This document shows, in pieces, positions 1-12,596 of a stretch of DNA of 64,000 bases (positions within the stretch are counted from its first letter, which is position 1; each line of letters starts with the position of its first letter). Under the pieces are notes generated by a model. It did no database searches. It worked only from the letters and a program-made list of their open reading frames with translations, and was not told the origin of the DNA. The position numbers were made by a program, and so were the translations under genes. Origin of the DNA: Paracoccaceae bacterium (lineage in GTDB: Bacteria; Pseudomonadota; Alphaproteobacteria; Rhodobacterales; Rhodobacteraceae); the NCBI GenBank assembly GCA_019429405.1, contig JAHYIZ010000002.1:1-64000 (forward strand), given 5' to 3'.

Positions 1-960
1 GGGCCAGATCGTGACCTTGTCGAACTCTTCGCGCAGCACGGTTTCGACCAGCGCCGGGGTTGAGGGCCGCTCGCCCGCGCGCAGATCGTCGTAACAGGGC
101 ACCGAGGGGTCGTTGTAGAGAATCCCTACCGGAATTTCGTCGGCAATCGCCGCAATCGCCAGCGCGCGGCCCATGTCGAGCGGGTCGTGGGTTTCCTGGT
201 TCTTGTAAACGCGCGAGACCTCTGGGCTGAGCCGCAGGCCGTTGCCATGGGTAAGAATGCGCATCTTCGACGGGTCGCGCACGAAATCATCGAACCGATG
301 GTCCATGAACTCGGGGCAGCGTTGCAAGATGCGCACGAAGGAAAGGCCGCGGTGGTGATAGGCCTTTTTCAGGATGTCGTAGAGCAGATCGGGGATCCAG
401 TCGACCGCCTGCGCCACGAACGAGACGTTGGCGACCCCGAGCGTGACCGTAAGCGGGTTGATCGGCAAGAGCACCGAGCCAAAGGGCGTCGTGTTGCTTT
501 TCTGGCCGATGGGAGAGGTCGGCGAGGCCTGCTTTTTGGTCAGCCCGTAAATCTGGTTGTCGTGCAACAACATGGTCATGTTCATGTTGTAGCGGATCGC
601 GTGAATCCAGTGCGCGGCGCCGATGCTGCAACAATCGCCGTCGCCGGTGGTGACGAACACATTCAGGTCGGGGCGGCGGATCTTGACGCCTTCGGCAATC
701 GGCAGCGCGCGCCCGTGGATGCCGTGAAAGCCGTAGGCGTTCATGTAATGCGGCAGGCGGCTGGAACAGCCGATGCCCGAAACGCAGACGGTCTTTTCGG
801 GTGCCAGTTGCTCATCGCGGCAAAGCCGCTGCATGGCGGTCAGAATGGCGGTATCGCCGCAGCCCGCGCACCAGCGCGGCGTGATGTCGCTTTGGTAATC
901 CGACAGCACATAATCGGTCTCGACCATGCGCATCATGCATTGGGAAAGGTTCTCGGTCAT
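1..960 (-). CDS. korB: 2-oxoacid:acceptor oxidoreductase beta subunit (KorB-like), 3' end cut by window edge
   Basis: TPP- and [4Fe-4S]-carrying subunit of a 2-oxoacid (probably 2-oxoglutarate) oxidoreductase: oxidative decarboxylation to acyl-CoA with electrons passed to ferredoxin or a flavoprotein partner. I translated at least 320 residues from ATG at 960 to the left edge. Visible are WCAGCG (Cys31 and Cys34), a third Cys in SGIGCSS and a later Cys in LQRCPEF, which match the four cluster ligands of the family; TPP binding shows as TTGDGDCCSIG followed by a downstream DNQIYGLTKKQ. The gene starts 4 nt after korA ends, in the same operon. The C-terminus lies outside the window. 2-Oxoglutarate as substrate is inferred from the two-subunit architecture; pyruvate or another 2-oxoacid is possible. 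Confidence 0.9.
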   Translation of the reverse strand, partial: MTENLSQCMMRMVETDYVLSDYQSDITPRWCAGCGDTAILTAMQRLCRDEQLAPEKTVCVSGIGCSSRLPHYMNAYGFHGIHGRALPIAEGVKIRRPDLNVFVTTGDGDCCSIGAAHWIHAIRYNMNMTMLLHDNQIYGLTKKQASPTSPIGQKSNTTPFGSVLLPINPLTVTLGVANVSFVAQAVDWIPDLLYDILKKAYHHRGLSFVRILQRCPEFMDHRFDDFVRDPSKMRILTHGNGLRLSPEVSRVYKNQETHDPLDMGRALAIAAIADEIPVGILYNDPSVPCYDDLRAGERPSTPALVETVLREEFDKVTIWP

Positions 961-964
961 CGGA

Positions 965-2866
965 TCATTCCTTTCCCAGTTTGGCGCGCACGGCGGCGAC
1001 GATGGCGGCGGGTTTCAGCGGTTGCCCGCGCGCGTTGCCCCAGCAATCAATGTCTACGAGGTAGCGCGAGCGCAAAAGCAGCGCGAGATGCGAATAGCGG
1101 CGGTTTTCTGGCGTGATGAGCGGGTCTGAAAGCGGGTCGTTCCAGTTGTTCTCGATGCTCATCACATGGGTAAAGCGCTTCATCACCTCGCCAATGCCCG
1201 ATGCCATCGGTTGCAGGAACTTCAGGTGCAACGACGAAACCGCCAGCCCCTCGGCGCGCAAGATGCCCACCGCCTCTTCGATCGCGCCCAGCGTGCTGCC
1301 CCAGCCCAGCAGCAACATCTCGCCGCTCTCGCCACCGCAGAGCGGCGGCAGGCGAAGCGTGGTTTGCAGCGCCGCCAGCTTGCGCGAGCGGTTGAGCAAG
1401 CCCTCTTCGTTGATCTCGGGGTCATAGGCAACGTGGCTGTCGCGGTCATGCGCAAGCCCGGTCAGGCAATGCATGCCATTGGGCTGACCGGGGATGAAGC
1501 GTGTGGCAATGCCGGTGCGCGGGTCCCAGTCATAGGGCCTTGCATCTTCGGGCACCGCACTCTGGTTCACCGGCGGGGCCAGCCAGTCTTCACTGAACTC
1601 GGGCCGGGCAAAGGGTTGCTGCGCGGTGGCAAGGCTCGCGTCCGACAGGATCATGACGACCATGTTGAAGGTCTCGGCGATCTTGCGCGCGGTGATGACA
1701 GAATAAAAGCAGTCTTCAATGGTCGAGACCGCCATCACCACCTTGGGCGCGTCGCCATGGCCACCGTAGATCGAGGCCATCAGGTCGCCCTGTTCCACCT
1801 TGGTGGGCAGCCCGGTTGAAGGCCCGCCGCGCTGCACGTTGATCAGCACCAGCGGGATCTCGGCCATCACCGCCAGCCCCAGCGCCTCTTGTTTCAGCGA
1901 GAGGCCGGGGCCGGATGTGACCGTGACCGCGCATTTGCCCGCGTAGCTTGCGCCAATTGCAAAGGCGCAGGCGGCGATCTCGTCTTCGGCCTGATGCACG
2001 ACGCAGCCGACCTTCTCAAAGAGGTTGCTCAGGTAATGCGAGGTCGAGGTGGCGGGCGTGATGGGGTACATCGCGCACACTTCCATGCCCGAGGCGACCA
2101 CGCCCAGCGCCAGCGCCGAATTGCCGTTCATCACCACCTGGGTCTGCGACGAGCGCTTGGCGGGCACCGAAAAGCGCAAATCGAGGTTGGCTTCGGCCCA
2201 GGCGCGCCCGGCGTTCAGCAGTTCGATGTTGGCGTCGATGATCTTCTGGTCTTTCTTGCCGAAAATCCGCGCCACCTGGGCCCGCGCCAGCTCTTCGTCA
2301 AGGCAGTAGATGCCGCAGAGCATGCCGAGCACGAACATGTTCTTGCCCTTGCGCGGATCGGGCACGAGTTTCAGGCATTCCACCTCCATCGGCACTTCAT
2401 AAACGCGAAAGCCACGCGCGCGGACATCGTCGAGAACGCGCGCGTAAGAGGCCGCGATGCCCGCGTTGCGGTCGGTGCGCCACTTGCTTTCCATCAATAT
2501 GATGCCGCCGGGTTTGATCTCGCCCGCATTCAGGCGGCTTAGCAGCACCTGTTCGTTGAAGGCGACCACCAGATCGGCCTCGTTGCCGCCGTTGCTGACC
2601 GGCCCGGTGGCAAAGCGCACCCGGTTACCGCTGGCGCCCGCGACCGACCGGTGGGGGGGCTGAATTTCGGCGGGGATGATCTCCACCGTCCAGATGCCAT
2701 TGCCCGACCGCGCCGCGATGGCGCCAAAGCTCTGGCCGCAGCGCTGTGCGCCTTCGCCCGAGTCCGAGATGATCTCGATGATATGCTCGTTCACAACCAG
2801 TGCCGGGCGCGGTTGTGGCGCACGCGATTGCTGTTCGATGACTGCCTGTCCGGCTGTGTTGCCCAT
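965..2866 (-). CDS. korA: 2-oxoacid:acceptor oxidoreductase alpha subunit with fused gamma domain (KorA-like)
   Basis: 633 aa. The N-terminal third is the gamma domain (GEGAQRCGQSFGAIA, then a stretch ending GGIILMESKW). The rest is the alpha (pyrimidine-binding) domain with the family signature YPITPATSTSHYL, followed by EDEIAACAFAIGASYAGK and TSGPGLSLKQEALGLA. The gamma-alpha fusion with a separate beta subunit is the two-subunit form known from 2-oxoglutarate oxidoreductases, including the NADP-linked KorABC enzyme of aromatic-degrading Azoarcus. A GGGAGG ribosome-binding site sits about 10 nt before ATG 2866. It lies 15 nt downstream of the NfnB-like gene and 4 nt upstream of korB, so the four genes form one operon. 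Confidence 0.92.
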   Translation of the reverse strand: MGNTAGQAVIEQQSRAPQPRPALVVNEHIIEIISDSGEGAQRCGQSFGAIAARSGNGIWTVEIIPAEIQPPHRSVAGASGNRVRFATGPVSNGGNEADLVVAFNEQVLLSRLNAGEIKPGGIILMESKWRTDRNAGIAASYARVLDDVRARGFRVYEVPMEVECLKLVPDPRKGKNMFVLGMLCGIYCLDEELARAQVARIFGKKDQKIIDANIELLNAGRAWAEANLDLRFSVPAKRSSQTQVVMNGNSALALGVVASGMEVCAMYPITPATSTSHYLSNLFEKVGCVVHQAEDEIAACAFAIGASYAGKCAVTVTSGPGLSLKQEALGLAVMAEIPLVLINVQRGGPSTGLPTKVEQGDLMASIYGGHGDAPKVVMAVSTIEDCFYSVITARKIAETFNMVVMILSDASLATAQQPFARPEFSEDWLAPPVNQSAVPEDARPYDWDPRTGIATRFIPGQPNGMHCLTGLAHDRDSHVAYDPEINEEGLLNRSRKLAALQTTLRLPPLCGGESGEMLLLGWGSTLGAIEEAVGILRAEGLAVSSLHLKFLQPMASGIGEVMKRFTHVMSIENNWNDPLSDPLITPENRRYSHLALLLRSRYLVDIDCWGNARGQPLKPAAIVAAVRAKLGKE

Positions 2867-2881
2867 GGTTTGACCGCCTCC

Positions 2882-4390
2882 CTAGATCAGTCGCACATGC
2901 GTGAAGTTGCGTTCCGCCAGATCGATGCCGAACAGGCTGCCCTCTAGCCCTGCCGGCTCTGGCGCGTAGACACGGGCCGAATCGCGGATGCCGAGGTAAT
3001 CCTTGATGCTTGCCGCCGCCTTGCGCCCGGCACCCATCGCCAGAATGACCGTGGCGGCGCCGGTAACGATGTCGCCCCCGGCATAGACGCCCGCCAGCGA
3101 GGTGGCGAGCGTGTCGTCGCACTGGATATAGCCACGCTTGTCGAGCTTCAGCTTCGAGGTTTGCCCGAGGATCGGGTTTGGCGAGGTGCCGATGGCATAG
3201 ACCACGGTATCGGCCTCAAAGTCGAACTCGCTGCCCGGTATCACCACCGGGCTGCGCCGGCCGCTGTCATCGGGCGCGCCCAGCTCCATGCGTACGCAGC
3301 GCAGCGCGCGCACGTTGCCATTTTCATCGCCAAGGATTTCCACCGGGTTGGTCAGCCAGTGAAACTCGATGCCCTCTTCTTCGGCGTGGTGCAGTTCTTC
3401 CTTGCGCGCCGGGCATTCGGTTTCGGTGCGCCTGTAGATGCAGTTCACCTGCTCGGCGCCCAGCCGCAGCGACACCCGCATCGCATCCATCGCGGTGTTG
3501 CCCGCGCCGATTACCGCCACCCGCTTGCCAAGCCCCAGAGGCGTGTCATAGGCCGGGAACTGCCCGGCCCGCATCAGGTTGCAGCGGGTCAGCAATTCGT
3601 TGGCCGAAAGCACACCGTTCAGCCCCTCGCCCGGCAGGTCCATGAAGCGGGGCGAGCCTGCGCCGGTGCCGATGAACACCGCGTCATAGCCCATCTCGCC
3701 CAGCATCTGTTCAATGGTGAACAGGCGCCCGACCAGTGTGTTGCACTTGATTTCCACGCCCAGCGCCTCGATCGCGCCGATTTCGGCATCGACGACCGAG
3801 TTGGGCAGGCGGAATTCAGGGATGCCGTAGCGCAGCACCCCGCCCGGTTCGTGCAGCGCCTCAAAGATGGTGACCCTGCAACCCGCCTTGGCGAGGTCTG
3901 CCGCGCAGGCCATGCCGGCGGGGCCAGACCCGACGATGCCCACGCGGAAGGGCTGGCGCTCGATATGGCTGACCTTGCGCCAGCCTTCGGCAATTGCCTT
4001 GTCGCCCAGCCAGCGTTCCAGCCGCCCGATGGCGACGGGTTCGAGCGTGCCGCCCGCGCCGACCGGGCAGACACCTTCGCACTGATCCTCTTGCGGGCAG
4101 ACGCGGCCGCAGACGGCGGGCAGCAGGGTGCTGTCGGTCAACAGGTCATAGGCGGCGCGGTAATCGTGCTTGATCATCCGGGTGATGAAGCCCGGAATGT
4201 CGATATTGACCGGGCAGCCCTCGATGCAGGCGGGCTGCGGGCAGACCAGACAGCGCTCACATTCCACCAGCGCGTTGTCGAGATCGAAGCCGAGCGCCAC
4301 CTCGTCAAAGTTGTGGGCGCGAACCTCGGCCTCCTGCACCGGCATATGCGCGCGCAGTTGCGGAATCGAACGGATCGTCTTGCGGGCCAT
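2882..4390 (-). CDS. NfnB/GltD-type NADPH-dependent Fe-S flavoprotein
   Basis: 502 aa. It belongs to the glutamate-synthase small subunit/NfnB/SudA family: an N-terminal ferredoxin-like domain with two Cys clusters (CERCLVCPQPACIEGCPVN and CGRVCPQEDQCEGVCPVG), then an FAD Rossmann motif (VGIVGSGPAGMACAADLA) and an NAD(P) motif (VAVIGAGNTAMDAMRVSL), ending with GDIVTGAATVILAMGAGR. ATG 4390 overlaps the stop codon of the upstream gene by one base (TGATG), which indicates translational coupling; a start 45 nt upstream would extend into that gene. No glutamate synthase large subunit is nearby. With the NfnA-like partner it resembles the electron-bifurcating NADH:ferredoxin-NADP oxidoreductase or the NADP-reductase module of a KOR complex. 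Bifurcation itself is inference. Confidence 0.85.
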   Translation of the reverse strand: MARKTIRSIPQLRAHMPVQEAEVRAHNFDEVALGFDLDNALVECERCLVCPQPACIEGCPVNIDIPGFITRMIKHDYRAAYDLLTDSTLLPAVCGRVCPQEDQCEGVCPVGAGGTLEPVAIGRLERWLGDKAIAEGWRKVSHIERQPFRVGIVGSGPAGMACAADLAKAGCRVTIFEALHEPGGVLRYGIPEFRLPNSVVDAEIGAIEALGVEIKCNTLVGRLFTIEQMLGEMGYDAVFIGTGAGSPRFMDLPGEGLNGVLSANELLTRCNLMRAGQFPAYDTPLGLGKRVAVIGAGNTAMDAMRVSLRLGAEQVNCIYRRTETECPARKEELHHAEEEGIEFHWLTNPVEILGDENGNVRALRCVRMELGAPDDSGRRSPVVIPGSEFDFEADTVVYAIGTSPNPILGQTSKLKLDKRGYIQCDDTLATSLAGVYAGGDIVTGAATVILAMGAGRKAAASIKDYLGIRDSARVYAPEPAGLEGSLFGIDLAERNFTHVRLI

Positions 4391-5346
4391 CAGCGCACCC
4401 CCCCGGCATCTTGCGGCACTTGCAGGCGGCGGCAATTTTCATCGTAGCGTTCCAGCGCGTCGCGCTCTTGCGCCTTGTAACGCTTGAGCCGCAGCATCAG
4501 GTCGTTGAAATCGACCTTGTGGCCATCGAAATCGGGGCCATCAACGCAGGCAAAGCGGATGCGGTCATCGACCTTGACGCGGCACCCGCCGCACATGCCG
4601 GTGCCGTCAACCATGATCGGGTTCAGGCTGACCATGGTTTTCACTTTGTAGGGGCGGGTGGTTTCAACGCAGCCCTTCATCATGATCGGCGGGCCGATCA
4701 CCACCACCTCGTCAACATCGACATGTTCACCTAGCGCCTTTTCGATGCCCAGCGTCACCAGGCCCTTGATGCCGACCGAGCCATCATCGGTGCAGATGAT
4801 GAACTCGTCGCAGACGGCGCGGAACTTTTCCTCCCAGAAGACCAGATCCTTGTTGCGAAAGCCGACCACGCCGATGACATAGGCGCCCGCTTCCTTGAAG
4901 GCGCGCGCCTGCGGGTAGACCGGCGCCACGCCAAGGCCGCCGCCGACGCAGACCACCTTTTTTGCGCTTGAAGTATGGCTCGGCACCCCCATTGGCCCGA
5001 CAAGGCCGTAAAGCGTGCCCCCCGCGTGCAACGTCGCCTGCATCTGGCGGGTCGATTTGCCCACCGCCTGCACCACCAGCGTCACCGTGCCGCGGTCGCG
5101 GTCGAAGTCGGCGATGGTCAGCGGCACCCGCTCGCCGTGCTCATCGAGAATCACGATCACGAACTGGCCGGGCTTGGCGGCGCGCGCCATCGCCGGGTGC
5201 TCGACCTCCAGCAGAAAGGTGACATCCGAAAAATTGGTGCGCGTCAGGATCGGGAAACCCTTTGATCGGATGTCGTCATAAGGGTTTGCGCCCGCCTGGG
5301 GCGCGGCTGTCGCACCGGCTGCACCCGCGTCGTTGTGGTCGGTCAT
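4390..5346 (-). CDS. NfnA/PyrK-type FAD/NAD-binding [2Fe-2S] reductase subunit
   Basis: 318 aa. Ferredoxin-NADP-reductase fold: FAD-binding barrel (PGQFVIVILDEHGERVPLTI), NAD-binding lobe (VCVGGGLGVAPVYPQA) and a C-terminal [2Fe-2S] motif (GTGMCGGCRVKVDDRIRFAC) as in NfnA, PyrK and SudB. I chose ATG 5346 because a GGGAAGGGA ribosome-binding site precedes it directly; the frame is open upstream but the extra residues look random. First gene of the operon. Upstream is a perfect FNR-type palindrome, centred 65 nt before the start, with a TAGGGT -10-like word 31 nt further in, the geometry of an activator bound near -41. Family is clear; the electron donor and acceptor cannot be read from sequence alone. 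Confidence 0.85.
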   Translation of the reverse strand: MTDHNDAGAAGATAAPQAGANPYDDIRSKGFPILTRTNFSDVTFLLEVEHPAMARAAKPGQFVIVILDEHGERVPLTIADFDRDRGTVTLVVQAVGKSTRQMQATLHAGGTLYGLVGPMGVPSHTSSAKKVVCVGGGLGVAPVYPQARAFKEAGAYVIGVVGFRNKDLVFWEEKFRAVCDEFIICTDDGSVGIKGLVTLGIEKALGEHVDVDEVVVIGPPIMMKGCVETTRPYKVKTMVSLNPIMVDGTGMCGGCRVKVDDRIRFACVDGPDFDGHKVDFNDLMLRLKRYKAQERDALERYDENCRRLQVPQDAGGVR

Positions 5347-5377
5347 TCCCTTCCCCCCCCGCCTTTGGCCTTGAGGG

Positions 5378-5383
5378 ACCCTA
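5378..5383 (-). promoter_or_regulatory. putative -10 element of the nfn/kor operon
   Basis: TAGGGT on the minus strand, centred 31 nt downstream of the centre of the FNR-type box. This would place the box near -41 relative to a start site around 5370, about 24 nt before the first ATG. It is a weak -10 by sequence, and the call rests on spacing. Confidence 0.4.
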
Positions 5384-5404
5384 CGCCGATGCGCCCGTGC
5401 TTCC

Positions 5405-5418
5405 TTGATCTGCATCAA
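5405..5418 (-). promoter_or_regulatory. FNR/FnrL-type box of the nfn/kor operon
   Basis: TTGATCTGCATCAA, a perfect TTGAT-N4-ATCAA inverted repeat identical to the FNR consensus half-sites. It lies 59-72 nt before the first start codon of the minus-strand operon. In Rhodobacter relatives such boxes are bound by the oxygen-sensing regulator FnrL. This implies low-oxygen activation of the redox operon. Confidence 0.75.
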
Positions 5419-5523
5419 TGGTGCCATTCGTCTGGCGGTCTGGTGCGAGACTGCCCGGCAAGACGACCTCGAATCCCCGGTCAAGCCGATCACGAAACTA
5501 TGATGCATTAAAGATATTTATTA

Positions 5524-5537
5524 TTGACGGGGATCAA
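5524..5537 (+). promoter_or_regulatory. second FNR/Crp-type box, cytochrome c side
   Basis: TTGACGGGGATCAA, with half-sites TTGAC and ATCAA separated by 4 nt. It is one mismatch from a perfect inverted repeat and fits the FNR/FnrL consensus. It lies 127 nt before the cytochrome c start codon and is preceded by an AT-rich tract. Which of the two divergent units it serves is uncertain, but the plus-strand cytochrome is closer. Confidence 0.6.
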
Positions 5538-5664
5538 TGCCGCCATCCCCGGCAATGCCCATTGTTGCCGCGTGGGGCGGCTCGGTCTGCCCTTGCCACG
5601 CCACCAGGCTGGGGCCGTGGCGGGTGGGCAAAAGGCCTTTGTGCCCTCATACAAGGAGGACGTC

Positions 5665-6279
5665 ATGAAACTGCACTTCCTGAGGAATTCGGCCGTGGCA
5701 CTTGCCGCCGTGGTGCTTGCGGCCTCGGCGCCGGGGTGGGCGCAGACCGCGCCCGATGCTGCGCTTGTGGCCAAGGGCAAGGCGATCTTCGAGGCCGGTG
5801 TCGACGGTATTCCTTGCGCGGCCTGCCACGGCGAAGACCCGACGGGGGTCGTGGGCGGCGCGATTGCCGGTCAGGATGCGGCGACGGTTCACGCGGCACT
5901 GGCCGATAATGCCGTGATGCAATCGCTGGCCCTGACCGAAGACCAGATTGCCGCCGTATCGGCCTATCTGGTGAGCATCGGCACCGCGACCGTGGTCTCG
6001 ATCGCGCCGGCGGCGGGGGGCACCCCCGCAAGCGTCTCACCGACTTACATTCAGCTCGCGACGCTCGGTAAAGAGATATTCGAATCCGGTGCGAATGGTC
6101 TCGGTTGTAAGGAATGCCATGGCCATGACGCGACCGTGCTGGTGGCGCCGAACCTTGCCGGACGGAAAGCAGGTGATGTGCACATGGCGATCATGTCGGT
6201 TGACGGGATGGCCGGGATTACGCTGACCGCAGACCAGCTTGCGGCCGTGGTGGCCTATCTGACGCAGGCGGCGCAATAG
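5665..6279 (+). CDS. periplasmic dihaem class-I cytochrome c
   Basis: 204 aa. ATG 5665 is preceded by a strong AAGGAGGA site, and the protein starts with a classical signal peptide (MKLHFLRNSAVALAA, cleavage after PGWAQ). Two c553/c4-like haem domains follow, each with a CXXCH motif: PCAACHGEDP in the first and GCKECHGHDA in the second. Each domain ends with a helix of the type LTEDQIAAVSAYL or LTADQLAAVVAYL. It should carry electrons in the periplasm. Divergent from the nfn/kor operon across a region with two FNR-type boxes, so expression under low oxygen is likely. The terminal partner (an oxidase, denitrification enzyme or reaction centre) is not in the window. Confidence 0.88.
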   Translation: MKLHFLRNSAVALAAVVLAASAPGWAQTAPDAALVAKGKAIFEAGVDGIPCAACHGEDPTGVVGGAIAGQDAATVHAALADNAVMQSLALTEDQIAAVSAYLVSIGTATVVSIAPAAGGTPASVSPTYIQLATLGKEIFESGANGLGCKECHGHDATVLVAPNLAGRKAGDVHMAIMSVDGMAGITLTADQLAAVVAYLTQAAQ

Positions 6280-6322
6280 GCACGGGTCCCCCGTCGGTTG
6301 GAACCTCTCGGGGGGGCTTGCC

Positions 6323-7294
6323 TCATGCGGCGGGGGGGGCCGCCGGCTTCACCCCCACCCATGCCGCGGCTTTTTCGCCCATGGTGCGAAACTTGGCCGA
6401 GACGCTGGTCAGCTTGGCTTCCCATTCCGGGTTGGGGGTCTGGCCTTCGGTCACCTTGAAAAACACCTGCAACATGCAGGCAATGGCGAAAGGTTCAATC
6501 AGCGCCGCCTTGGCTGCCCAGGCAAACAGCAGCGCGAAGACCACGCCGCCCGCCGCCAGTGTGCCCGGCATCAGGTAGACCACCGCCGCAGCGGGGGCGA
6601 GCATCACCAGAAACACCACGAACGACAGCACATAGACAATGGCCGTCAGCCAGACCGCGTTGATCATGATCGGCTTGGCGTTCTGGCCATAAAGCACCAG
6701 CGCCTCGCGCGCACTGGCATAGGGGTTGTCGGACCGGGTGCGGATCGCATGCGCCAGCATCACTTCGTCCAGCAGCCCCACCGCGACCCGCAGATAGGCG
6801 CGCACCAGCCCCATGATCTTGTTCAACCCCGGTATCGGAAGAATCGTCAGCAACCCTTGCACCAGCCCGGTGATGGCGCCCAGCACGCCCTTGATCAGAC
6901 GGTCGAGCAGGAACAGCGCCGAGGCCTGCCCGAAACGCTCGGTCACCACGGCGCGTGCGTGTTCGATCTGGCCGCGCCCCTGCGGCAGGGTGCCGCCCTG
7001 CAACAGCTCGACCATCACCGCGATATGGCCTGCCTTGACGACATAGAGCAGATAGTCGCGCAGGAAGAAGAGCACCCCGGCGACCGCACCAAAGCCGATG
7101 GCGCCGCCCCAGAACGTGGAGGAGGCCCGAAATTCCTCATCGCCAAAACCGCCGATGCCCCAACCGATACCCGCACCGGTGCCGGTGGCGAGGATATAGG
7201 CGGCGGTAATGGCGAAATAGACGACCATGCGGAACAGCACAAAAGGCGCCGTCTGCCGCATCAGGCCAAGCCCGCGTGAAATGCTGAAATCCAT
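6323..7294 (-). CDS. polytopic membrane protein of unknown function
   Basis: 323 aa from ATG 7294 (MDFSISRGLGLMRQ). Several hydrophobic stretches fit membrane helices, for example FRMVVYFAITAAYILATG, a Gly-rich GAIGFGAVAGVLFF, and the pair AVWLTAIVYVLSFVVFLVML plus a following VVYLMPGTLAAGGVVFALLFA-type segment. Charged loops contain no recognisable catalytic motif. The C-terminus is Pro/Ala-rich (GVKPAAPPAA). Tail-to-tail with the cytochrome c gene, 43 nt apart. I do not recognise a named family; it looks like a conserved Rhodobacteraceae inner-membrane protein. Confidence 0.7.
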   Translation of the reverse strand: MDFSISRGLGLMRQTAPFVLFRMVVYFAITAAYILATGTGAGIGWGIGGFGDEEFRASSTFWGGAIGFGAVAGVLFFLRDYLLYVVKAGHIAVMVELLQGGTLPQGRGQIEHARAVVTERFGQASALFLLDRLIKGVLGAITGLVQGLLTILPIPGLNKIMGLVRAYLRVAVGLLDEVMLAHAIRTRSDNPYASAREALVLYGQNAKPIMINAVWLTAIVYVLSFVVFLVMLAPAAAVVYLMPGTLAAGGVVFALLFAWAAKAALIEPFAIACMLQVFFKVTEGQTPNPEWEAKLTSVSAKFRTMGEKAAAWVGVKPAAPPAA

Positions 7295-7413
7295 GTGCTG
7301 TCTCCCGCTTGGCGGCGCGCAATGGCGCTGCATCCGCGCGTCAGCTTAGCGTAAATCGTGACAATTTTGTGCAAGAAAAACACGCGCTAGCCCCGAAAAC
7401 CCGGCGCGAAAAC

Positions 7414-7438
7414 GAAAAAGCGCCGCGAGAGCGGCGCC
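7414..7438 (-). terminator. rho-independent terminator after the DUF882 gene
   Basis: On the minus strand the stem GCGCCGC / GCGGCGC with a TCTC loop is followed by a run of five T and further T-rich sequence. It begins about 27 nt beyond the stop codon of the DUF882 gene. Confidence 0.75.
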
Positions 7439-7463
7439 TTGCAGATTCGGCGGTTTGGGTGGC

Positions 7464-8024
7464 TCAGGCGCCCCAGGTGCGGATCGGGCCGCAATCCATA
7501 TGCACGAAGTTCGAGCCGGAATATTTGCCGACGCCGCCCGCGTTGCACGAGGCCGCAGCGCGGTAGATTTGCGAGACCGAGCGGCCCTCAAGCCGCATGT
7601 CTGCCGCCTGGCCCTGAATATGCAGCGAGTTTTTTGCAACCCCGCGCGAGACCTTGCGCATGGCGTCATTGGTGGCTTGCGAGCGGTAGCCTGAAAGCAT
7701 GTTGTAAGGAGCCGAGGCTTCCATCAGGCGATGCGACGCGGCGGCAATGTCGATCGTGCGCGGGTCAATGCTGATGACCTGATTGTTGCGCACATCGCGC
7801 ATGAAGCGGCTGATCTCGGCCATCGCTTCCTTGATATACTCGCCCTCGACCCAGTAAACCATGTCAATCGATTCACCGGTTCGGCCCGAAAACATGCGGA
7901 TGCGGCGGATGTCACCTGCGCCCCTGAGAAAGCCGAAAGCCTTGCTGGACGTCGGAGCTGCGACAACCATTGTTGCCGCGAAGGCGCCAAGAAGGCCGCG
8001 CCTTGAGAATGCCGCTGTGTTCAT
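7464..8024 (-). CDS. DUF882 / M15-type murein peptidase (YcbK-like), Tat-exported
   Basis: 186 aa. The N-terminus SRRGLLGAFAATMVVAA is a twin-arginine signal. The mature part has the DUF882/peptidase M15 pattern: a GYRSQATNDAMRK region, then HIQGQAADMRLEG (the H-x6-D zinc site) and a C-terminal FVHMDCGPIRTWGA (the H of the site). Such periplasmic zinc enzymes trim peptidoglycan peptides. It is divergent from an L,D-transpeptidase gene 311 nt away, and the two probably act on the same cell wall. A good terminator follows. Confidence 0.85.
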   Translation of the reverse strand: MNTAAFSRRGLLGAFAATMVVAAPTSSKAFGFLRGAGDIRRIRMFSGRTGESIDMVYWVEGEYIKEAMAEISRFMRDVRNNQVISIDPRTIDIAAASHRLMEASAPYNMLSGYRSQATNDAMRKVSRGVAKNSLHIQGQAADMRLEGRSVSQIYRAAASCNAGGVGKYSGSNFVHMDCGPIRTWGA

Positions 8025-8335
8025 TTCGCGTCGCCTGTCCCGTATTTTGCCGTATTTGCCAACGGCTTAACTGATCGTTCACACTCAACCACCAAAACTT
8101 TATGGCACAAAGTGATTCGCCTTCCAACCTCGCATTTGTCGCATCTGGGAAAATCCAAGTGCGATCGGCTGGTTTTTGCCGAATGGCGCAAGGTGTGGCT
8201 TTCGCGCATCTGGCTGCGCACTGACCGCGCCAAAGCCTGCAAATGCACGGCATTGTGTGTGCCCTGGGGTGGACAGATGCGGCATTTTGTCAGAGATTCC
8301 CGAGACTGTTTCGGGCGATTTGAGGGGTAGGCGGC
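8025..8335. other. intergenic region between divergent cell-wall genes
   Basis: 311 nt without a credible gene. It contains a tandem near-repeat (CCGTATTTTG then CCGTATTTG, 8040-8058) close to the DUF882 start and a small inverted repeat (CCCGA / TCGGG) about 25 nt before the transpeptidase gene. I see no convincing RNA gene in it. Confidence 0.5.
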
Positions 8336-9958
8336 ATGTTGGAAGCGATGCGGGCGGCGGGTCAGCGCTGGATCTGGGCACGGCTTTTCGCCGCCATGTT
8401 CGTCGTTGTCGGTTTTGCGGCAGCGCCTGCCACAGCGCAGCTTTCCGGGTTTGGGCAATCTTTGGCCGAAGCCGCCTCGGCCGACCCCGCGCTGGCCGAG
8501 TTCTACGGCAACCGCGGCTATGCGCCGATCTGGACCACCGGCGCCGATGCTGAGCGCCGTGCCGCGCTTTTCGCGGCCCTTGCCGCGGCACCTTCGCATG
8601 GGCTGCCCGCTGCCCGTTATGGCGCCGAGGCACTGGCCGTGCGTTTTGGCACGCTGCACACCGAACGCGACCGCGCGCGGCTGGAGGCTGCAATGTCGGT
8701 GGCGCTGCTGAGCTATGCGCGCGATGTGCAGGTTGGCGTTGTCGCCAACCCCGCCGCCATTGAACAGGGCATGGTGCGCAAGCCCGCGCGGCAAGACCGG
8801 CTCGCGATTCTCGAAGCCTTCGCGGCGGGCGATCCGGCAGCGGTGCTGCGCGCGCTGCCGCCGCAGATGCCTGAATACGGCCAGCTGATGCGCGCCAAGT
8901 TCGATATCGAGGCCGCGATGGCGCGCGGCAGCTGGGGGCCGCAAGTGGCGGTTCAGGGCAAGATCGAGCCGGGGGCGTCGGGCCCGCGCGTGATCGCACT
9001 GCGTGACCGGCTGATCGGGCTTGGCTATCTGGGGCGCTCGGCCTCGGCGAGCTATGATCTGCCAATGCAGCAGGCGGTGCAGATGTTCCAGCTCGACAAC
9101 GGCCTGCTGGCTGATGGCGTAGCCGGCGAGACGACCTTGCGTGAAATCAACCGGGCGCCCGAAGAGCGCCTGCGCGCAATCGTCGTTGCGATGGAGCGGC
9201 TGCGCTGGATGCACGGCACCGAATGGGGCCAGCGCTACGTCTGGGTGAACATTCCCGATTACCACGCCAAGATCGTTGACGATGGCAAGGTCACGTTCGA
9301 GACCGTCACCGTGGTCGGTCAGAACCTGAAAGACACGCGCACGCCCGAGTTTTCAGATTTCATGGAACATCTGGTGATCAACCCGAGCTGGTATGTGCCG
9401 CGCTCGATCACCGTCAAGGAATACCTGCCGATGTTGCAGGCCGACCCGAACGCGGTTTCCTACCTGCAACTGATCGACGGCAGCGGTCGGGTGATCCCGC
9501 GTGATGGCCTTGATTTCACCCAGTTCAACGGCAACACCTTTCCCTTCGACATGAAGCAGGCGCCGTCAAACAGCAATGCACTGGGGTTGGTGAAATTCAT
9601 GTTCCCGAACCCGCACAACATCTATCTGCACGATACCCCGTCAAAATCGCTGTTTGCACGCGAAACGCGGGCGTTTTCGCATGGCTGCATCCGTTTGCAG
9701 CAGCCGTTCGATTTTGCCTACACGCTGCTGGCGCGTCAAAGCAGCGACCCAAAGGGTCTGTTTGCAAGCTATCTGCGCACCGGTCAGGAATCGACGTTGC
9801 CGCTTGAACAGCGGGTGCCGGTGCATCTGGTCTACTTCACCGCATGGCCCAACGCCAAAGGCCGCACCGAGTTTCGCCGCGATATCTATGGCCGCGATCA
9901 GGCGATTTATCAGGCGCTGCAAAACGCCGGGGTGGCGCTGCCTTCGTGGCAGAGCTAA
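8336..9958 (+). CDS. murein L,D-transpeptidase (YcbB-like)
   Basis: 540 aa. Signal sequence (helix FAAMFVVVGFAAAPATAQ), an N-terminal scaffold domain, a peptidoglycan-binding domain around residues 215-270 (GPRVIALRDRLIGLGYLG, then VQMFQLDNGLLADGVAGETT) and a C-terminal YkuD catalytic domain with the SHGCIRLQQP signature; the nucleophile is Cys451, preceded by His449. It forms 3-3 crosslinks in peptidoglycan. ATG 8336 has a GAGGGGT-type site. It is divergent from the DUF882 peptidase, and the next gene (lpxD) follows 57 nt later. Length and domain order match YcbB/LdtD-type enzymes. Confidence 0.92.
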   Translation: MLEAMRAAGQRWIWARLFAAMFVVVGFAAAPATAQLSGFGQSLAEAASADPALAEFYGNRGYAPIWTTGADAERRAALFAALAAAPSHGLPAARYGAEALAVRFGTLHTERDRARLEAAMSVALLSYARDVQVGVVANPAAIEQGMVRKPARQDRLAILEAFAAGDPAAVLRALPPQMPEYGQLMRAKFDIEAAMARGSWGPQVAVQGKIEPGASGPRVIALRDRLIGLGYLGRSASASYDLPMQQAVQMFQLDNGLLADGVAGETTLREINRAPEERLRAIVVAMERLRWMHGTEWGQRYVWVNIPDYHAKIVDDGKVTFETVTVVGQNLKDTRTPEFSDFMEHLVINPSWYVPRSITVKEYLPMLQADPNAVSYLQLIDGSGRVIPRDGLDFTQFNGNTFPFDMKQAPSNSNALGLVKFMFPNPHNIYLHDTPSKSLFARETRAFSHGCIRLQQPFDFAYTLLARQSSDPKGLFASYLRTGQESTLPLEQRVPVHLVYFTAWPNAKGRTEFRRDIYGRDQAIYQALQNAGVALPSWQS

Positions 9959-10015
9959 ACCGGAACCGGAAGTGGCGGGGCAGGGGTGCCCCGGCCGCAC
10001 GATCCGGGGCCTGCA

Positions 10016-11107
10016 ATGGAACATACAGTTGCTTCGATTGCCCGCGCGCTTGGGCTTGCCGCCGAGGGTGAGACCGCTTTGGCGATCACCGGCGTGGCCG
10101 AGCCGGCGCTTGCGGTGCCCGGCGATCTGGCGTTTGCAGGCAGCCCGAAATATGCCGAGGATCTGGCGCGAGGGCAGGCGCGGGCCGCCTTGCTCTGGGC
10201 GGGTGCAGACTGGCGCGGGCTTGGCCTCGCCGCGGCGATTCTGGCCGAGCGCCCGCGCCACGCCATGGCAGGCATCAGCCGCCTGTTTGACCCCGGCCCC
10301 GAAATTGCCCCCGGTATCCACCCCGGCGCGGTGATCGACCCCAGCGCGGTGATTGGTGAAGGGGCGGCCATCGGGCCGTTCGTGGTGATAGGGCGGGGTG
10401 TGCGCGTTGGCCCAGGCGCGCGCATTGGCGCATACACCAGCATTGCCGAGGGCAGCGTGATCGGCCCCGACGCCTTGCTGCACGCGCGCGTGACCATCTG
10501 CGCCCGCGTCGAAATTGGCGCGCGTTTCATCTGCCAATCGGGCGCGGTGATCGGCGGCGACGGGTTTTCGTTTGTGACGCCTGAGAAATCGGGCGTCGAA
10601 GAGGTGCGCGAAACGCTGGGGCAGCGCAGCGCGCTGCGGCCCCAGGCCTGGGCGCGCATTCACAGCCTCGGTGGCGTGGTCATTGGCGACGATGTTGAAG
10701 TGGGGGCAAATTCGGCGATTGATCGTGGCACGGTGCGCGCCACTTCGGTTGGCTCTGGCACCAAGATCGACAACCTCGTGCAAGTTGGCCACAACGCGCA
10801 GATCGGGCGTGATTGTCTGTTGTGCGGGCAGGTGGCAATCGGCGGCTCGGCGCGCTTGGGCGACAGGGTGGTGCTGGGTGGCAAGGCCGGCATAAGCGAC
10901 AACATCTCGGTGGGCGATGATGTGGTGGCGGGGGCAGGCACCATCATCATGTCGAACGCCCCGGCCGGGCGCGCCATGTTTGGCGCCCCGGCGATCCGGA
11001 TGGATCAGCAGATCGAGGCCTGGAAGCACATGCGCCGCCTGGGGCGACTATTCGCGCAGGTGGCAGAGTTGCGCGAAGCTGCTAAAAGAACGCGCGACAA
11101 GGATTGA
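10016..11107 (+). CDS. lpxD: UDP-3-O-acylglucosamine N-acyltransferase (LpxD)
   Basis: 363 aa. Catalyses the third step of lipid A synthesis, N-acylation of UDP-3-O-acylglucosamine from acyl-ACP. The N-terminal uridine-binding domain begins HTVASIARALGLAAEGE. It is followed by hexapeptide repeats of a left-handed beta helix, including IDPSAVIGEGAAIGPFVVIG. The catalytic His is in NLVQVGHNAQIGRDCLLCG. ATG 10016 was chosen because the family begins here; an upstream in-frame start adds 10 unconserved residues. It is the first gene of a short operon with an acyl carrier protein and a ketosynthase, not in the usual lpxD-fabZ-lpxA order, which suggests a dedicated acyl supply. Confidence 0.9.
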   Translation: MEHTVASIARALGLAAEGETALAITGVAEPALAVPGDLAFAGSPKYAEDLARGQARAALLWAGADWRGLGLAAAILAERPRHAMAGISRLFDPGPEIAPGIHPGAVIDPSAVIGEGAAIGPFVVIGRGVRVGPGARIGAYTSIAEGSVIGPDALLHARVTICARVEIGARFICQSGAVIGGDGFSFVTPEKSGVEEVRETLGQRSALRPQAWARIHSLGGVVIGDDVEVGANSAIDRGTVRATSVGSGTKIDNLVQVGHNAQIGRDCLLCGQVAIGGSARLGDRVVLGGKAGISDNISVGDDVVAGAGTIIMSNAPAGRAMFGAPAIRMDQQIEAWKHMRRLGRLFAQVAELREAAKRTRDKD

Positions 11108-11119
11108 ACGGAGGCATTC

Positions 11120-11383
11120 ATGACCAGTGCAGTTGCGGACGAAATCATTACCATCATCGCCCGGCAGGCGATGCTCGACCCATCCGAGGTGCGGCTTGAC
11201 ATGACGCTGGACGAGCTGGGGTTTGACAGCCTCGTGCTGGTCGAGGCGCTCTTTGCCATCGAGGAAAAATTCGACGTTTCGGTTCCTTATAACGCGAACG
11301 AGCCGGATGAGGCCGATTTTGACATCTCGTCTGTTGCCGCCGTGATCGCGGGTGTCGAGGCGCTTGTGGCGGCCAAGGCCTGA
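11120..11383 (+). CDS. specialised acyl carrier protein
   Basis: 87 aa acidic protein with the phosphopantetheine attachment motif LGFDSLVLVEALFAIEEKF (Ser in GFDSL). It differs from the primary AcpP, which has DSLDTVE, so it is probably a dedicated carrier. The gene sits 12 nt after lpxD and 4 nt before the ketosynthase start. In other alphaproteobacteria a dedicated ACP beside ketosynthases (the acpXL locus) makes very-long or secondary acyl chains for lipid A; a similar role here is inference. Confidence 0.85.
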   Translation: MTSAVADEIITIIARQAMLDPSEVRLDMTLDELGFDSLVLVEALFAIEEKFDVSVPYNANEPDEADFDISSVAAVIAGVEALVAAKA

Positions 11384-11387
11384 CGCG

Positions 11388-12596
11388 GTGGGCCGGGTTG
11401 TCATTACCGGGGCGGGCAGTATCAACCCGCTCGGCGCAACTGTTACCGAAACCTGGGCGGCAATGCAGGCGGGGCGCTGCGCGATCGGGCCGATGGCGTT
11501 TCGCGACAGCGATCGGCTTTCGGTGCAGATCGGGGCGCAGGTGCAAGGCTTTCGGCCCGAAGACCATCTGAGCCGCGCCGAATTGGGCTTTGCCGACCGC
11601 TTCGCGCAATTTGCGCTGGTCGCGGCACGTCAGGCCGTGGCGCAATCGGGGCTGGCGTTTGACGGCGCGCTGGCGGCCCGCGCGGGCGTGGTGATCGGCA
11701 CCGCAGGCGGTGGGCTGACCACCTCGGATGATGCCTACCGTGCGGTCTATGCCGAGGGCAAGAACCGCGTGCACCCGTTCACCGTGCCGCGCCTGATGCA
11801 CAATGCCGCCGCCAGTCTTGTGGGCATGGCTTTTGGCCTGCAAGGCCCCTCGTTCTCGGTTGCCACCGCCTGCGCGGGCTCGAACCACGCGATGGGGCTT
11901 GCGTTTCAAATGGTGCGCTCGGGCGCCGCGCCGGTGATGCTGGCGGGTGGTGCCGAGGCGATGCTGTGCTTTGGCGGCATCAAGGCGTGGGAAGGGCTGC
12001 GGGTGATGTCATCCGATGGCTGCCGCCCCTTCAGCGCCGACCGCAACGGGCTGGTGCAAGGCGAGGGCGCCGCCGTCTTCGTGTTTGAAGATTACGACCA
12101 CGCGCGGGCGCGCGGCGCCGTGATGCTGGCCGAGGTGGTGGGCTTTTCGATGGGCGCCGATGCCGCCGACATGGTGATGCCTTCGGTCGAGGGGGCGGCG
12201 CGCGCCATGGCGGGCGCGCTGCGCGATGCGCGCCTTGCGCCCGAGGCCGTGGGCTACATCAACGCCCATGGCACCGGCACAGCTGCCAATGACCGCACCG
12301 AATGCGCCGCCGTGCGGCAGGTTTTTGGCGCGCATGCCGACCGGCTGATGATCTCATCCACCAAGTCGATGCACGGCCACCTGATTGGCGCCACAGGCGC
12401 AGTGGAACTGCTGGCCTGCCTGATGGCGCTGTCGGAAGGGGTGATTGCGCCAACCATCGGCTACCGCGTGCCCGACCCTGACTGCGCGCTTGACGTCGTG
12501 CCGAACGAGGCACGGGCCGCGCGGGTCGATGTGGTCCTCTCGAACGCCTTCGGCTTTGGCGGGCTTAATGCGGTGCTGGCGCTGGCGCGGGTCTGA
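11388..12596 (+). CDS. beta-ketoacyl-ACP synthase (KAS I/II type)
   Basis: 402 aa from GTG 11388, 4 nt after the ACP stop. The upstream in-frame ATG lies inside the ACP gene. Thiolase-fold condensing enzyme with catalytic Cys in VATACAGSNHAMGLA, His in INAHGTGTAANDRTE and the second His in MHGHLIGATGAVELLA; C-terminal NAFGFGGLNAVL is the usual last motif. It should extend acyl chains on the neighbouring ACP. It is last in the lpxD-ACP-KAS operon and is followed by a G/C hairpin. Confidence 0.9.
   Translation: MGRVVITGAGSINPLGATVTETWAAMQAGRCAIGPMAFRDSDRLSVQIGAQVQGFRPEDHLSRAELGFADRFAQFALVAARQAVAQSGLAFDGALAARAGVVIGTAGGGLTTSDDAYRAVYAEGKNRVHPFTVPRLMHNAAASLVGMAFGLQGPSFSVATACAGSNHAMGLAFQMVRSGAAPVMLAGGAEAMLCFGGIKAWEGLRVMSSDGCRPFSADRNGLVQGEGAAVFVFEDYDHARARGAVMLAEVVGFSMGADAADMVMPSVEGAARAMAGALRDARLAPEAVGYINAHGTGTAANDRTECAAVRQVFGAHADRLMISSTKSMHGHLIGATGAVELLACLMALSEGVIAPTIGYRVPDPDCALDVVPNEARAARVDVVLSNAFGFGGLNAVLALARV

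What the first reader, a model, noticed from the sequence alone, without database searches (positions are those of the whole stretch)
1..5537. FNR-controlled NfnAB-like / KorAB electron-transfer operon
Four tightly coupled genes encode an NfnA-like, an NfnB-like and both KOR subunits, behind a perfect FNR box with activator-like spacing. Pairing an NADH/NADPH/ferredoxin transhydrogenase-like pair with a 2-oxoacid oxidoreductase in an otherwise aerobic-looking alphaproteobacterium suggests a low-oxygen module that either channels 2-oxoglutarate electrons to NADP or runs 2-oxoacid carboxylation. The nearest precedent I know is the NADP-linked KorABC of aromatic degraders; here the reductase part is split into two bifurcase-like subunits.
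Basis: partly seen in the sequence, partly recalled or inferred. Interest (0 to 1): 0.75.

Follow-up and report, generated by a model that had tools for sequence, protein, structure and literature searches.

The report
Low-oxygen 2-oxoglutarate oxidase with bifurcase module
The start of this window holds most of a conserved, oxygen-regulated five-gene unit that seems to join an oxygen-sensitive 2-oxoglutarate-oxidising enzyme to an electron-bifurcase-like NAD(P) reductase through a dead enzyme domain carrying a ferredoxin on a flexible arm, an arrangement I did not find described.

Summary
Genes nfnA, nfnB, korA and korB lie on the minus strand at 5346-1 (junctions: 1-base overlap, 15 bp, 4 bp), behind a perfect FNR box (5405-5418). 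korB is cut by the contig edge. The unit is larger than reported: a fifth gene (~750 aa) follows korB in relatives; its 3' end lies on another contig of the same genome. Of the best 80 related loci, 62 hold all five genes, always colinear; 17 of the other 18 are cut by contig ends, one has an N run. Gene 5 resembles the C-terminal (beta-like) domain of pyruvate:ferredoxin oxidoreductase, has lost the TPP motif and most cluster ligands, and carries a one-cluster ferredoxin on an Ala/Pro-rich linker. Nfn cofactor ligands and a KorAB-like substrate pocket are invariant where covered. FNR control is supported by footprinting: 35 of 65 upstream regions have a box (0.7 expected), and 26 of 34 boxes have a -10 element at 29-30 nt. 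Of 39 carriers searched, 34 also have aerobic 2-oxoglutarate dehydrogenase. Best reading: an FNR-activated low-oxygen 2-oxoglutarate:NAD(P) oxidoreductase with a tethered ferredoxin. Complex formation, substrate, direction and bifurcation are inferred.

The parts
4390..5346 (-). nfnA: small, NAD/FAD/[2Fe-2S] subunit of an Nfn-like module (318 aa, about 30 aa N-terminal extension)
   Evidence: PDB P. furiosus NfnI small subunit E 2.3e-92; ligands D247, C252, C255, C267 invariant in the 67-68 of 80 loci that cover them
2882..4390 (-). nfnB: large, FAD/NADP/2x[4Fe-4S] subunit of an Nfn-like module (502 aa, about 35 aa C-terminal extension)
   Evidence: PDB T. maritima Nfn large subunit E 1.7e-164; cluster ligands incl. 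E101 invariant in the 70-72 of 80 loci that cover them
965..2866 (-). korA: fused gamma-alpha subunit of a 2-oxoacid (probably 2-oxoglutarate):acceptor oxidoreductase (633 aa)
   Evidence: TIGR03710 507 bits, cut-off 482.75; M. marinus OGOR E 8e-81; A66, T351, L471 invariant in 80 of 80
1..960 (-). korB: beta (TPP, [4Fe-4S]) subunit; 320 of about 330 aa, cut by contig edge
   Evidence: GDG/N TPP motif, four Cys, R68, L140, K142 invariant in the 77-79 of 80 loci that cover them
5405..5418 (-). perfect FNR box of the operon
   Evidence: footprint
5378..5383 (-). -10-like TAGGGT, first base 29 nt from the FNR box centre (class II spacing)
   Evidence: TANNNT at 29 or 30 nt in 26 of 34 boxed upstream regions; coordinates read
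5524..5537 (.). second FNR-like box, one mismatch, between the operon and the divergent cytochrome c gene

Best explanation
The window holds the first four genes of an FnrL-activated five-gene unit that makes one multi-subunit enzyme, a 2-oxoglutarate (2-oxoacid):NAD(P) oxidoreductase used at low oxygen in place of, or next to, the aerobic OGDH complex. KorAB oxidises 2-oxoglutarate and CoA to succinyl-CoA and CO2. The fifth protein is a catalytically dead PFOR beta-like domain that docks on the complex. Its single-cluster ferredoxin, on an Ala/Pro-rich linker, swings between the KorB cluster and the Nfn-like flavoprotein pair. The Nfn pair then passes electrons to NADP+ and NAD(H), either with bifurcation chemistry (low-potential electrons plus NADH giving 2 NADPH) or as a plain reductase. 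Shown by computation: gene identity, conserved five-gene order, FNR promoter architecture, the PFOR-like fold of gene 5 and its loss of the TPP motif and most cluster ligands, and invariant cofactor ligands. Inferred: complex formation, the arm's motion, 2-oxoglutarate as substrate, direction and bifurcation.
For: In the best 80 named relatives (of 396 confirmed), 62 have all five genes and 62 of 62 are colinear; 17 of the other 18 lack genes only where the contig ends. Flanking gene families, shadow frames on the other strand set aside, are shared by at most 6 loci, so the unit is five genes. Gene 5: alignment of 65 sequences, AlphaFold mean pLDDT 85.9; match to the PFOR C-terminal region, Foldseek E 2e-5, VIA Z 17.7 over 260 residues at 3.7 A; its tail matches a ferredoxin at Z 9.8. 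GDG in 11 of 11 PFORs and 1 of 65 gene 5 at the same column; stretch with the third cluster Cys absent in 65 of 65; ferredoxin motif in 65 of 65. All Nfn ligands invariant where covered. Distances of gene 5 correlate with those of KorA and NfnB at r 0.91 (59 loci). KorA T351 and L471 and KorB L140, with KorA A66, agree with the Ala/Thr/Leu/Leu that PMC5020499 (passages) gives for 2-oxoglutarate-specific H. thermophilus KorAB (alignments). FNR. OGDH E1 present in 4 of 4 genus genomes and over cut-off in 34 of 39 carriers (three of them are genus members). No RnfC or NifH match over cut-off and no HGD-D match in the 4 genus genomes, so none of the outside ferredoxin users I searched. Parallel: giant PFORs lie beside an NfnB-like gene in 8 of 8 genomes of one genus.
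Against: No biochemistry. Gene 5 in the window's own genome is seen only as its last 119 codons on another contig; the junction with korB is inferred from relatives. Foldseek TM-scores over the whole gene 5 model are low (0.22 of the query) although E and probability are good, and KorB-type beta subunits match it only at Z 8-9. Docking on KorAB is thus an inference. NfnA distances track the others less well (r 0.62-0.71), and no unrelated control protein was run, so co-inheritance alone may give such correlations. 5 of 65 gene 5 proteins hold a GDG-x-N string somewhere. KorB R68 stands where K49R of StOFOR1 favoured pyruvate, although M. marinus OGOR also has Arg there. The Ser41/A66 match is my reading of the motif, as the StOFOR alignments do not cover that part. 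30 of 65 upstream regions showed no box. In the giant PFORs beside NfnB-like genes the tail is divergent and not covered by the gene 5 profile (L109 and L111). PMC6405883 (passages) warns that Nfn function cannot be told from sequence.
Confidence: 0.55

Rival explanations
1. KorAB, Nfn and gene 5 are separate soluble enzymes linked by the free ferredoxin pool: KorAB reduces ferredoxin, Nfn uses it, and gene 5 is just the cognate ferredoxin on an inactive carrier domain.
For: Classical KorAB and Nfn each work with soluble ferredoxin (recalled; Nfn reviewed in PMC6405883, passages). Gene order alone does not prove contact.
Against: Strict five-gene colinearity, a long carrier domain kept as a fold without its catalytic motif, correlated divergence (no control), and giant PFORs with a fused tail (L107, L108).
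Confidence: 0.2
2. The unit runs in reverse: NADPH oxidation with bifurcation supplies low-potential electrons for reductive carboxylation of succinyl-CoA to 2-oxoglutarate during anaerobic biosynthesis.
For: Closest solved relative is M. marinus OGOR, an enzyme of a reverse TCA cycle (recalled). All bifurcation ligands are kept.
Against: 34 of 39 carriers also have OGDH. A citrate-synthase-like gene (named by eye) lies nearby in 4 loci, which fits the oxidative direction. Neither is decisive.
Confidence: 0.13
3. The unit mainly supplies low-potential ferredoxin to another reductase such as benzoyl-CoA reductase, as KorAB or AadN are thought to do in R. palustris strains.
For: 12 of 39 carriers have HGD-D (benzoyl-CoA-reductase-type) genes. 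R. palustris AadN, a fused Nfn homologue, is needed for aromatic degradation, and strains have AadN or KorAB, not both (PMC9973337, section 7 and passages).
Against: 27 of 39 carriers and 4 of 4 genus genomes show no such genes; no NifH or RnfC over cut-off in the genus; RnfC over cut-off in 3 of 39 carriers. Kor and Nfn genes are together here, not alternatives.
Confidence: 0.08
4. Same machine, other substrate: pyruvate or another 2-oxoacid instead of 2-oxoglutarate.
For: OFOR subfamily names do not fix the substrate; the K49-equivalent is Arg.
Against: Pocket as in H. thermophilus KorAB; best solved hit is an OGOR; the genome holds a separate PorA-like gene.
Confidence: 0.15
5. The flavoproteins are a glutamate synthase small subunit and a sulfide or dihydroorotate dehydrogenase part unrelated to KorAB.
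For: NCBIfam names: nfnB passes TIGR01316 (568.1 vs 471.75 bits); nfnA passes NF004862 (384.4 vs 220 bits).
Against: Best solved relatives are Nfn subunits; invariant Nfn ligands; KorAB beside them wherever there is room. GltB and PyrD were not searched by model.
Confidence: 0.03

Closest known systems
NfnAB (NADH-dependent ferredoxin:NADP oxidoreductase, pattern A; T. maritima 4YRY, P. furiosus 5JCA)
   Same: Two separate subunits, FAD/NADP domains and [2Fe-2S]/[4Fe-4S] ligands, including the Asp and Glu ligands
   Different: Lies in a five-gene unit with KorAB and gene 5; NfnA N-terminal and NfnB C-terminal extensions
KorAB / OGOR (M. marinus 6N2N; H. thermophilus KorAB)
   Same: Fused gamma-alpha plus beta with one [4Fe-4S], TPP motif, OGOR-like pocket
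   Different: Encoded with its own NAD(P)-linked flavoprotein pair and a ferredoxin-tailed subunit
NADP-linked KorABC of denitrifying aromatic degraders (Azoarcus evansii; recalled, paper not held)
   Same: Same idea: 2-oxoglutarate oxidation coupled to NADP in an anaerobic TCA cycle (recalled)
   Different: One extra flavoprotein subunit (recalled) against two Nfn subunits plus gene 5 here; trios of a GltD-like gene with KorAB found here are a distant group
AadN of Rhodopseudomonas palustris (fused, pattern B Nfn; PMC9973337)
   Same: Nfn homologue in an alphaproteobacterium linked to low-potential electron flow
   Different: Fused, and an alternative to KorAB between strains, not its partner
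PFOR C-terminal beta-like domain, and giant ~1650-1700 aa PFORs with a linker-ferredoxin tail (L107, L108; a more divergent tail in L109, L111)
   Same: Fold of gene 5 and the linker plus single-cluster ferredoxin tail
   Different: Gene 5 stands alone and has lost the TPP motif and most cluster ligands
2-oxoglutarate dehydrogenase (SucAB-Lpd) complex
   Same: Analogy only: a mobile carrier on an Ala/Pro-rich arm between the TPP enzyme and a flavoprotein making NAD(P)H
   Different: Ferredoxin instead of a lipoyl domain; no homology claimed

Membership tests
Nfn (NfnAB) | Sequence relation of both subunits to solved Nfn | tested here: met
Nfn (NfnAB) | [2Fe-2S] ligands Asp + 3 Cys in NfnA | tested here: met
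   invariant in all 67-68 loci that cover them, of 80; ligand roles recalled
Nfn (NfnAB) | Two [4Fe-4S] ligand sets in NfnB incl. the Glu ligand | tested here: met
   C47, C50, C55, C59, C94, C98, E101, C104, C108 invariant in all 70-72 loci that cover them, of 80; ligand roles recalled
Nfn (NfnAB) | Electron bifurcation between NADPH, NAD+ and ferredoxin | not testable with these tools
   needs enzyme assays; not every Nfn homologue bifurcates (PMC9973337, passages)
KorAB (2-oxoglutarate:ferredoxin oxidoreductase) | POR gamma and alpha domains, YPITP, TPP motif, [4Fe-4S] Cys | tested here: met
KorAB (2-oxoglutarate:ferredoxin oxidoreductase) | 2-oxoglutarate specificity | tested here: inconclusive
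   pocket residues agree with KorAB but the Arg at the K49 position is ambiguous; activity untested
KorABC (NADP-linked trio) | A third FAD/NADP subunit of the KorC type in the Kor operon | tested here: inconclusive
   here two Nfn subunits instead; the reference A. evansii sequence was not obtained; GltD-like trios found here are distant
AadN / pattern B fused Nfn | Small and large subunits fused | tested here: not met
   two genes
PFOR/KorB beta subunit (for gene 5) | Fold of the PFOR C-terminal domain | tested here: met
   Foldseek E 2e-5 but whole-model TM 0.22; VIA Z 17.7
PFOR/KorB beta subunit (for gene 5) | TPP motif GDG...N and cluster Cys | tested here: not met
   GDG at the aligned column in 1 of 65; stretch with the third Cys absent in 65 of 65; one Cys (C141) kept
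FNR class II promoter | FNR box with the -10 element about 29-30 nt from its centre, conserved in relatives | tested here: met
   binding and expression not tested
Glutamate synthase small subunit | GltB partner encoded with it | tested here: not met
   no frame of GltB size beside it in window 1-12000; neighbours are NfnA and KorAB in the loci with room; no GltB model search

The most novel reading that the evidence does not exclude
A new kind of 2-oxoacid dehydrogenase machine: a five-subunit, oxygen-regulated complex in which a pseudo-enzyme with a swinging ferredoxin arm hands 2-oxoacid electrons directly to a flavin bifurcase, so that 2-oxoglutarate oxidation drives NADH-to-NADPH conversion (or runs backwards as a carboxylase) without the free ferredoxin pool.
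Probability: 0.35. Interest if true: 0.88.

Novelty: new variant of a known kind. Interest (0 to 1): 0.72.

Why it matters
Facultative bacteria must keep 2-oxoglutarate oxidation going when OGDH is held back at low oxygen. A dedicated FNR-switched complex that makes NADPH from it, found (by record titles) in alpha-, beta- and gammaproteobacteria that mostly also have OGDH, would fill that gap. It would also give a role to an Nfn homologue outside strict anaerobes, and show a ferredoxin used as a covalent swinging arm. The fifth protein is hardly seen by current annotation: for the L024 protein Pfam finds only the ferredoxin tail and NCBIfam nothing.

Tried and rejected
Rejected: glutamate synthase or sulfide dehydrogenase naming (family names only). 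Rejected as the general role: feeding nitrogenase, Rnf or benzoyl-CoA reductase, although 12 of 39 carriers have HGD-D genes. Considered and dropped: gene 5 as an active beta subunit. The genome-context lead to sox genes in a few loci (a SoxB-like frame, named by eye; Pfam shows only 5'-nucleotidase C and a sub-cut-off metallophosphatase match) is too local to use (5 loci).

Led nowhere: literature on KorC (one search gave noise; not held; passages of PMC9765128 and PMC4268860, do not describe such a unit). Searches of a library of open papers returned nothing that I recognised in listings or passages as this five-gene unit (one search returned no paper at all). Most subscription papers are not in it, so this is weak evidence of novelty. 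The second structure job and the viral fold library were not used. Rfam, PHROGs and PADLOC were not searched.

Rows dropped: one search set aside 3 loci with short upstream sequence (L032, L069, L078). Searches cut the upstream region differently, so their boxed sets differ slightly (L098 and L101 only in 47, L092 only in 89). The 34 boxes include 4 near-identical rows of the window's genus and one duplicated chromosome (L045/L046). One search used 11 of 14 PFOR rows (L118, L122, L130 left out because the script had picked a wrong frame), and printed only the 8 commonest variants per site. One search used 59 of 80 loci for the distance comparison. One search set aside clusters 5, 7 and 23 as shadow frames on the other strand; the gene calling is crude. 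Searches were given 40 (one not held) or 39 of the 80 loci.
Full report
Observation. The first 5.5 kb of the window hold four minus-strand genes with junctions of 1 overlapping base, 15 bp and 4 bp. Pfam and NCBIfam place them as small and large Nfn-like flavoproteins and the alpha and beta subunits of a 2-oxoacid oxidoreductase. Solved relatives are Nfn subunits (P. furiosus small subunit E 2.3e-92; T. maritima large subunit E 1.7e-164) and M. marinus 2-oxoglutarate:ferredoxin oxidoreductase (alpha E 8e-81; beta E 7.6e-52). The window is the start of contig C31, so korB lacks its last residues. The perfect FNR box lies at 5405-5418 and is one of five perfect boxes in the whole assembly. An FnrL-type regulator with an N-terminal Cys cluster is encoded beside a hemN-like gene in the same genome (named by eye from the sequence).

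A fifth gene. A scan of 84,980 species genomes gave 396 confirmed relatives of KorA, of which only the best 80 were kept and examined. In these, the two Nfn genes precede korA and korB wherever the contig allows, and a gene of about 750 codons follows korB. Counted strictly, 62 of 80 loci hold all five genes and 62 of 62 are colinear. The 18 others lack genes because the contig ends, except L046, where a run of N starts right after korB. Beyond these five genes no flanking family is shared by more than 6 loci, three clusters of shadow frames set aside. In the window's own genome the last 119 codons of gene 5 are at the very end of contig C28, followed by yjjI- and yjjW-like genes (glycyl radical enzyme and activase), the order seen in three close relatives. 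The middle of the own gene is not assembled.

Distribution. The unit is conserved but sparse. Close KorA relatives (80% or more) were found in 4 of 4 genomes of the genus and in 1 of 33 other genomes of the family. In a draw of 398 genomes of the phylum the gene 5 profile matched 49, but apart from the own genome these matches cover parts of it and lie in frames that look like PFORs (three of them read).

What gene 5 is. For the L024 protein Pfam sees only a C-terminal single-cluster ferredoxin, NCBIfam nothing, and a sequence search of the PDB nothing better than a ferredoxin at E 0.0035. A profile from 65 sequences hit the C-terminal part of giant 1650-1700-residue pyruvate:ferredoxin oxidoreductases, through the linker and ferredoxin tail in two genomes (L107, L108, alignment). 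The AlphaFold model (mean pLDDT 85.9) matches the PFOR C-terminal region: Foldseek E 2e-5, though with a whole-model TM-score of only 0.22, and VIA Z 17.7 with 260 residues at 3.7 A. Beta subunits of PFOR and oxalate oxidoreductase reach Z 15-16, KorB-type beta subunits and other TPP enzymes about 8. The tail matches ferredoxin I at Z 9.8. At the TPP column GDG is found in 11 of 11 PFORs and 1 of 65 gene 5 sequences. The stretch with the third cluster cysteine is absent in 65 of 65, and the first Cys of the CxxC pair is replaced in the commonest variants listed; the second is kept in all (C141). The ferredoxin motif is present in 65 of 65, after 52 residues with a median 58% Ala, Pro and Glu. 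Five of 65 still hold a GDG-x-N string somewhere. I read gene 5 as a dead beta-like domain that positions a ferredoxin arm.

Cofactors and substrate. The Nfn cluster ligands and the two NADPH-site arginines, and the KorB cluster and TPP residues, are invariant in all loci that cover them (residue roles recalled). The KorA and KorB pocket residues Ala, Thr, Leu and Leu agree with those listed for H. thermophilus KorAB in PMC5020499 (passages). Thr, Leu and Leu follow from alignments with StOFOR; the Ala is my reading of the motif. The residue at the Lys49 position is Arg, which in one archaeal mutant favoured pyruvate but is also Arg in M. marinus OGOR. 2-Oxoglutarate is thus likely, not shown. 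The genome has a separate PorA-like gene.

Regulation. Among 65 upstream regions of nfnA (window included), 12 have a perfect box and 35 one with at most one mismatch, against 0.01 and 0.68 expected from first-order Markov sequences. In 34 boxed regions a TANNNT lies 29 or 30 nt beyond the box centre in 26, and at most once at any other distance scanned. This is the geometry of FNR-activated class II promoters (recalled). Of the 30 regions without a box, 14 come from records titled beta- or gammaproteobacterial, 9 alphaproteobacterial and 7 other or unclear (titles); these may use another regulator or a promoter elsewhere.

Physiology. Four of four genomes of the genus and 34 of 39 carriers, three of them genus members, also have OGDH E1 over cut-off. 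The unit therefore looks like the low-oxygen counterpart of OGDH, not its replacement. The genus has no RnfC or NifH over cut-off and no HGD-D match, so a closed path to NAD(P) is the simplest sink; other ferredoxin users were not searched. Among 39 carriers, 12 have HGD-D and 3 RnfC over cut-off; a side role in supplying ferredoxin is possible there.

Mechanism proposed. 2-Oxoglutarate electrons pass from KorB's cluster to the ferredoxin arm of gene 5, and from it to the clusters of NfnB. There a bifurcating flavin can merge them with NADH electrons to reduce NADP+. The reverse, NADPH-driven carboxylation, cannot be excluded. In another genus, 8 of 8 giant PFORs lie next to an NfnB-like gene (in L109 of the long fused type). 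Their tail is divergent and outside the profile match, but L109 and L111 keep a C-x2-C-x2-C end. This is an independent pairing of similar parts.

Comparison with the known. Distant alphaproteobacterial KorA homologues come without an Nfn-like neighbour in the stretches held (L006, L016, L022) or with one GltD-like gene upstream (L009-L012), and showed no NfnA or gene 5 there. Two betaproteobacterial MAGs carry a GltD-like/KorA/KorB trio next to the five-gene unit (L065, L098). The five-gene group is thus a separate architecture. PMC9973337 (abstract, section 7 and passages) describes a fused Nfn homologue that replaces KorAB between R. palustris strains. PMC6405883 (passages) classifies Nfn homologues; its main text has no occurrence of oxoglutarate or 2-oxoacid. 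I did not find this unit described in searches of an open-paper library; subscription literature was not covered.

Verdict. The regulation (by sequence) and the gene partnership are strongly supported; the complex, the arm and the direction of flow are hypotheses that can be tested directly.

Noticed in passing
window 5665-6276 +: Divergent small protein with two c-type heme motifs (Cytochrome_CBB3 and Cytochrom_C) behind the one-mismatch FNR box at 5524-5537; L024 has two such genes in tandem (4806-5492 and 5711-6319, minus).
   Followed up: partly
L106 9822-12192 (own contig C28); L024 14224-16603: YjjI glycyl radical enzyme and YjjW activase directly after gene 5 in the own genome (by similarity) and three close relatives: another anaerobic function, of a substrate unknown to me, in the same gene run.
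   Followed up: partly
L107-L116: Giant PFORs of about 1650-1700 aa; in one genus (L109-L116) 8 of 8 lie beside an NfnB-like gene (PRK12779 type in L109); in L107 an rnfC-like frame follows (named by eye).
   Followed up: partly
L065 511-5323; L098 15130-19816: A second Kor cluster with a GltD-like protein carrying C-terminal 4Fe-4S domains, beside the five-gene unit in two betaproteobacterial MAGs.
   Followed up: partly
L020 1249-2742 (own contig C50): PorA-like alpha subunit (PorA_Arch 457 bits, below the 550 cut-off): a second 2-oxoacid oxidoreductase in a genome that also has OGDH and, by eye, PDH (L105).
   Followed up: no
L026: Contig labelled Actinobacteria is 95-99% identical in its NfnB and Kor proteins to the window, so the bin label is probably wrong.
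   Followed up: no
L062 4122-5831 and similar in L082, L085, L086, L093: A SoxB-like frame (named by eye; 5'-nucleotidase C domain in L062) upstream of the five-gene unit in five loci, four of them titled beta- or burkholderial.
   Followed up: no
L096 13216-18988 -: A GltD-like frame (32% to nfnB) beside a 1405-residue frame, perhaps a separate glutamate synthase pair (by eye), right after the five-gene unit.
   Followed up: no
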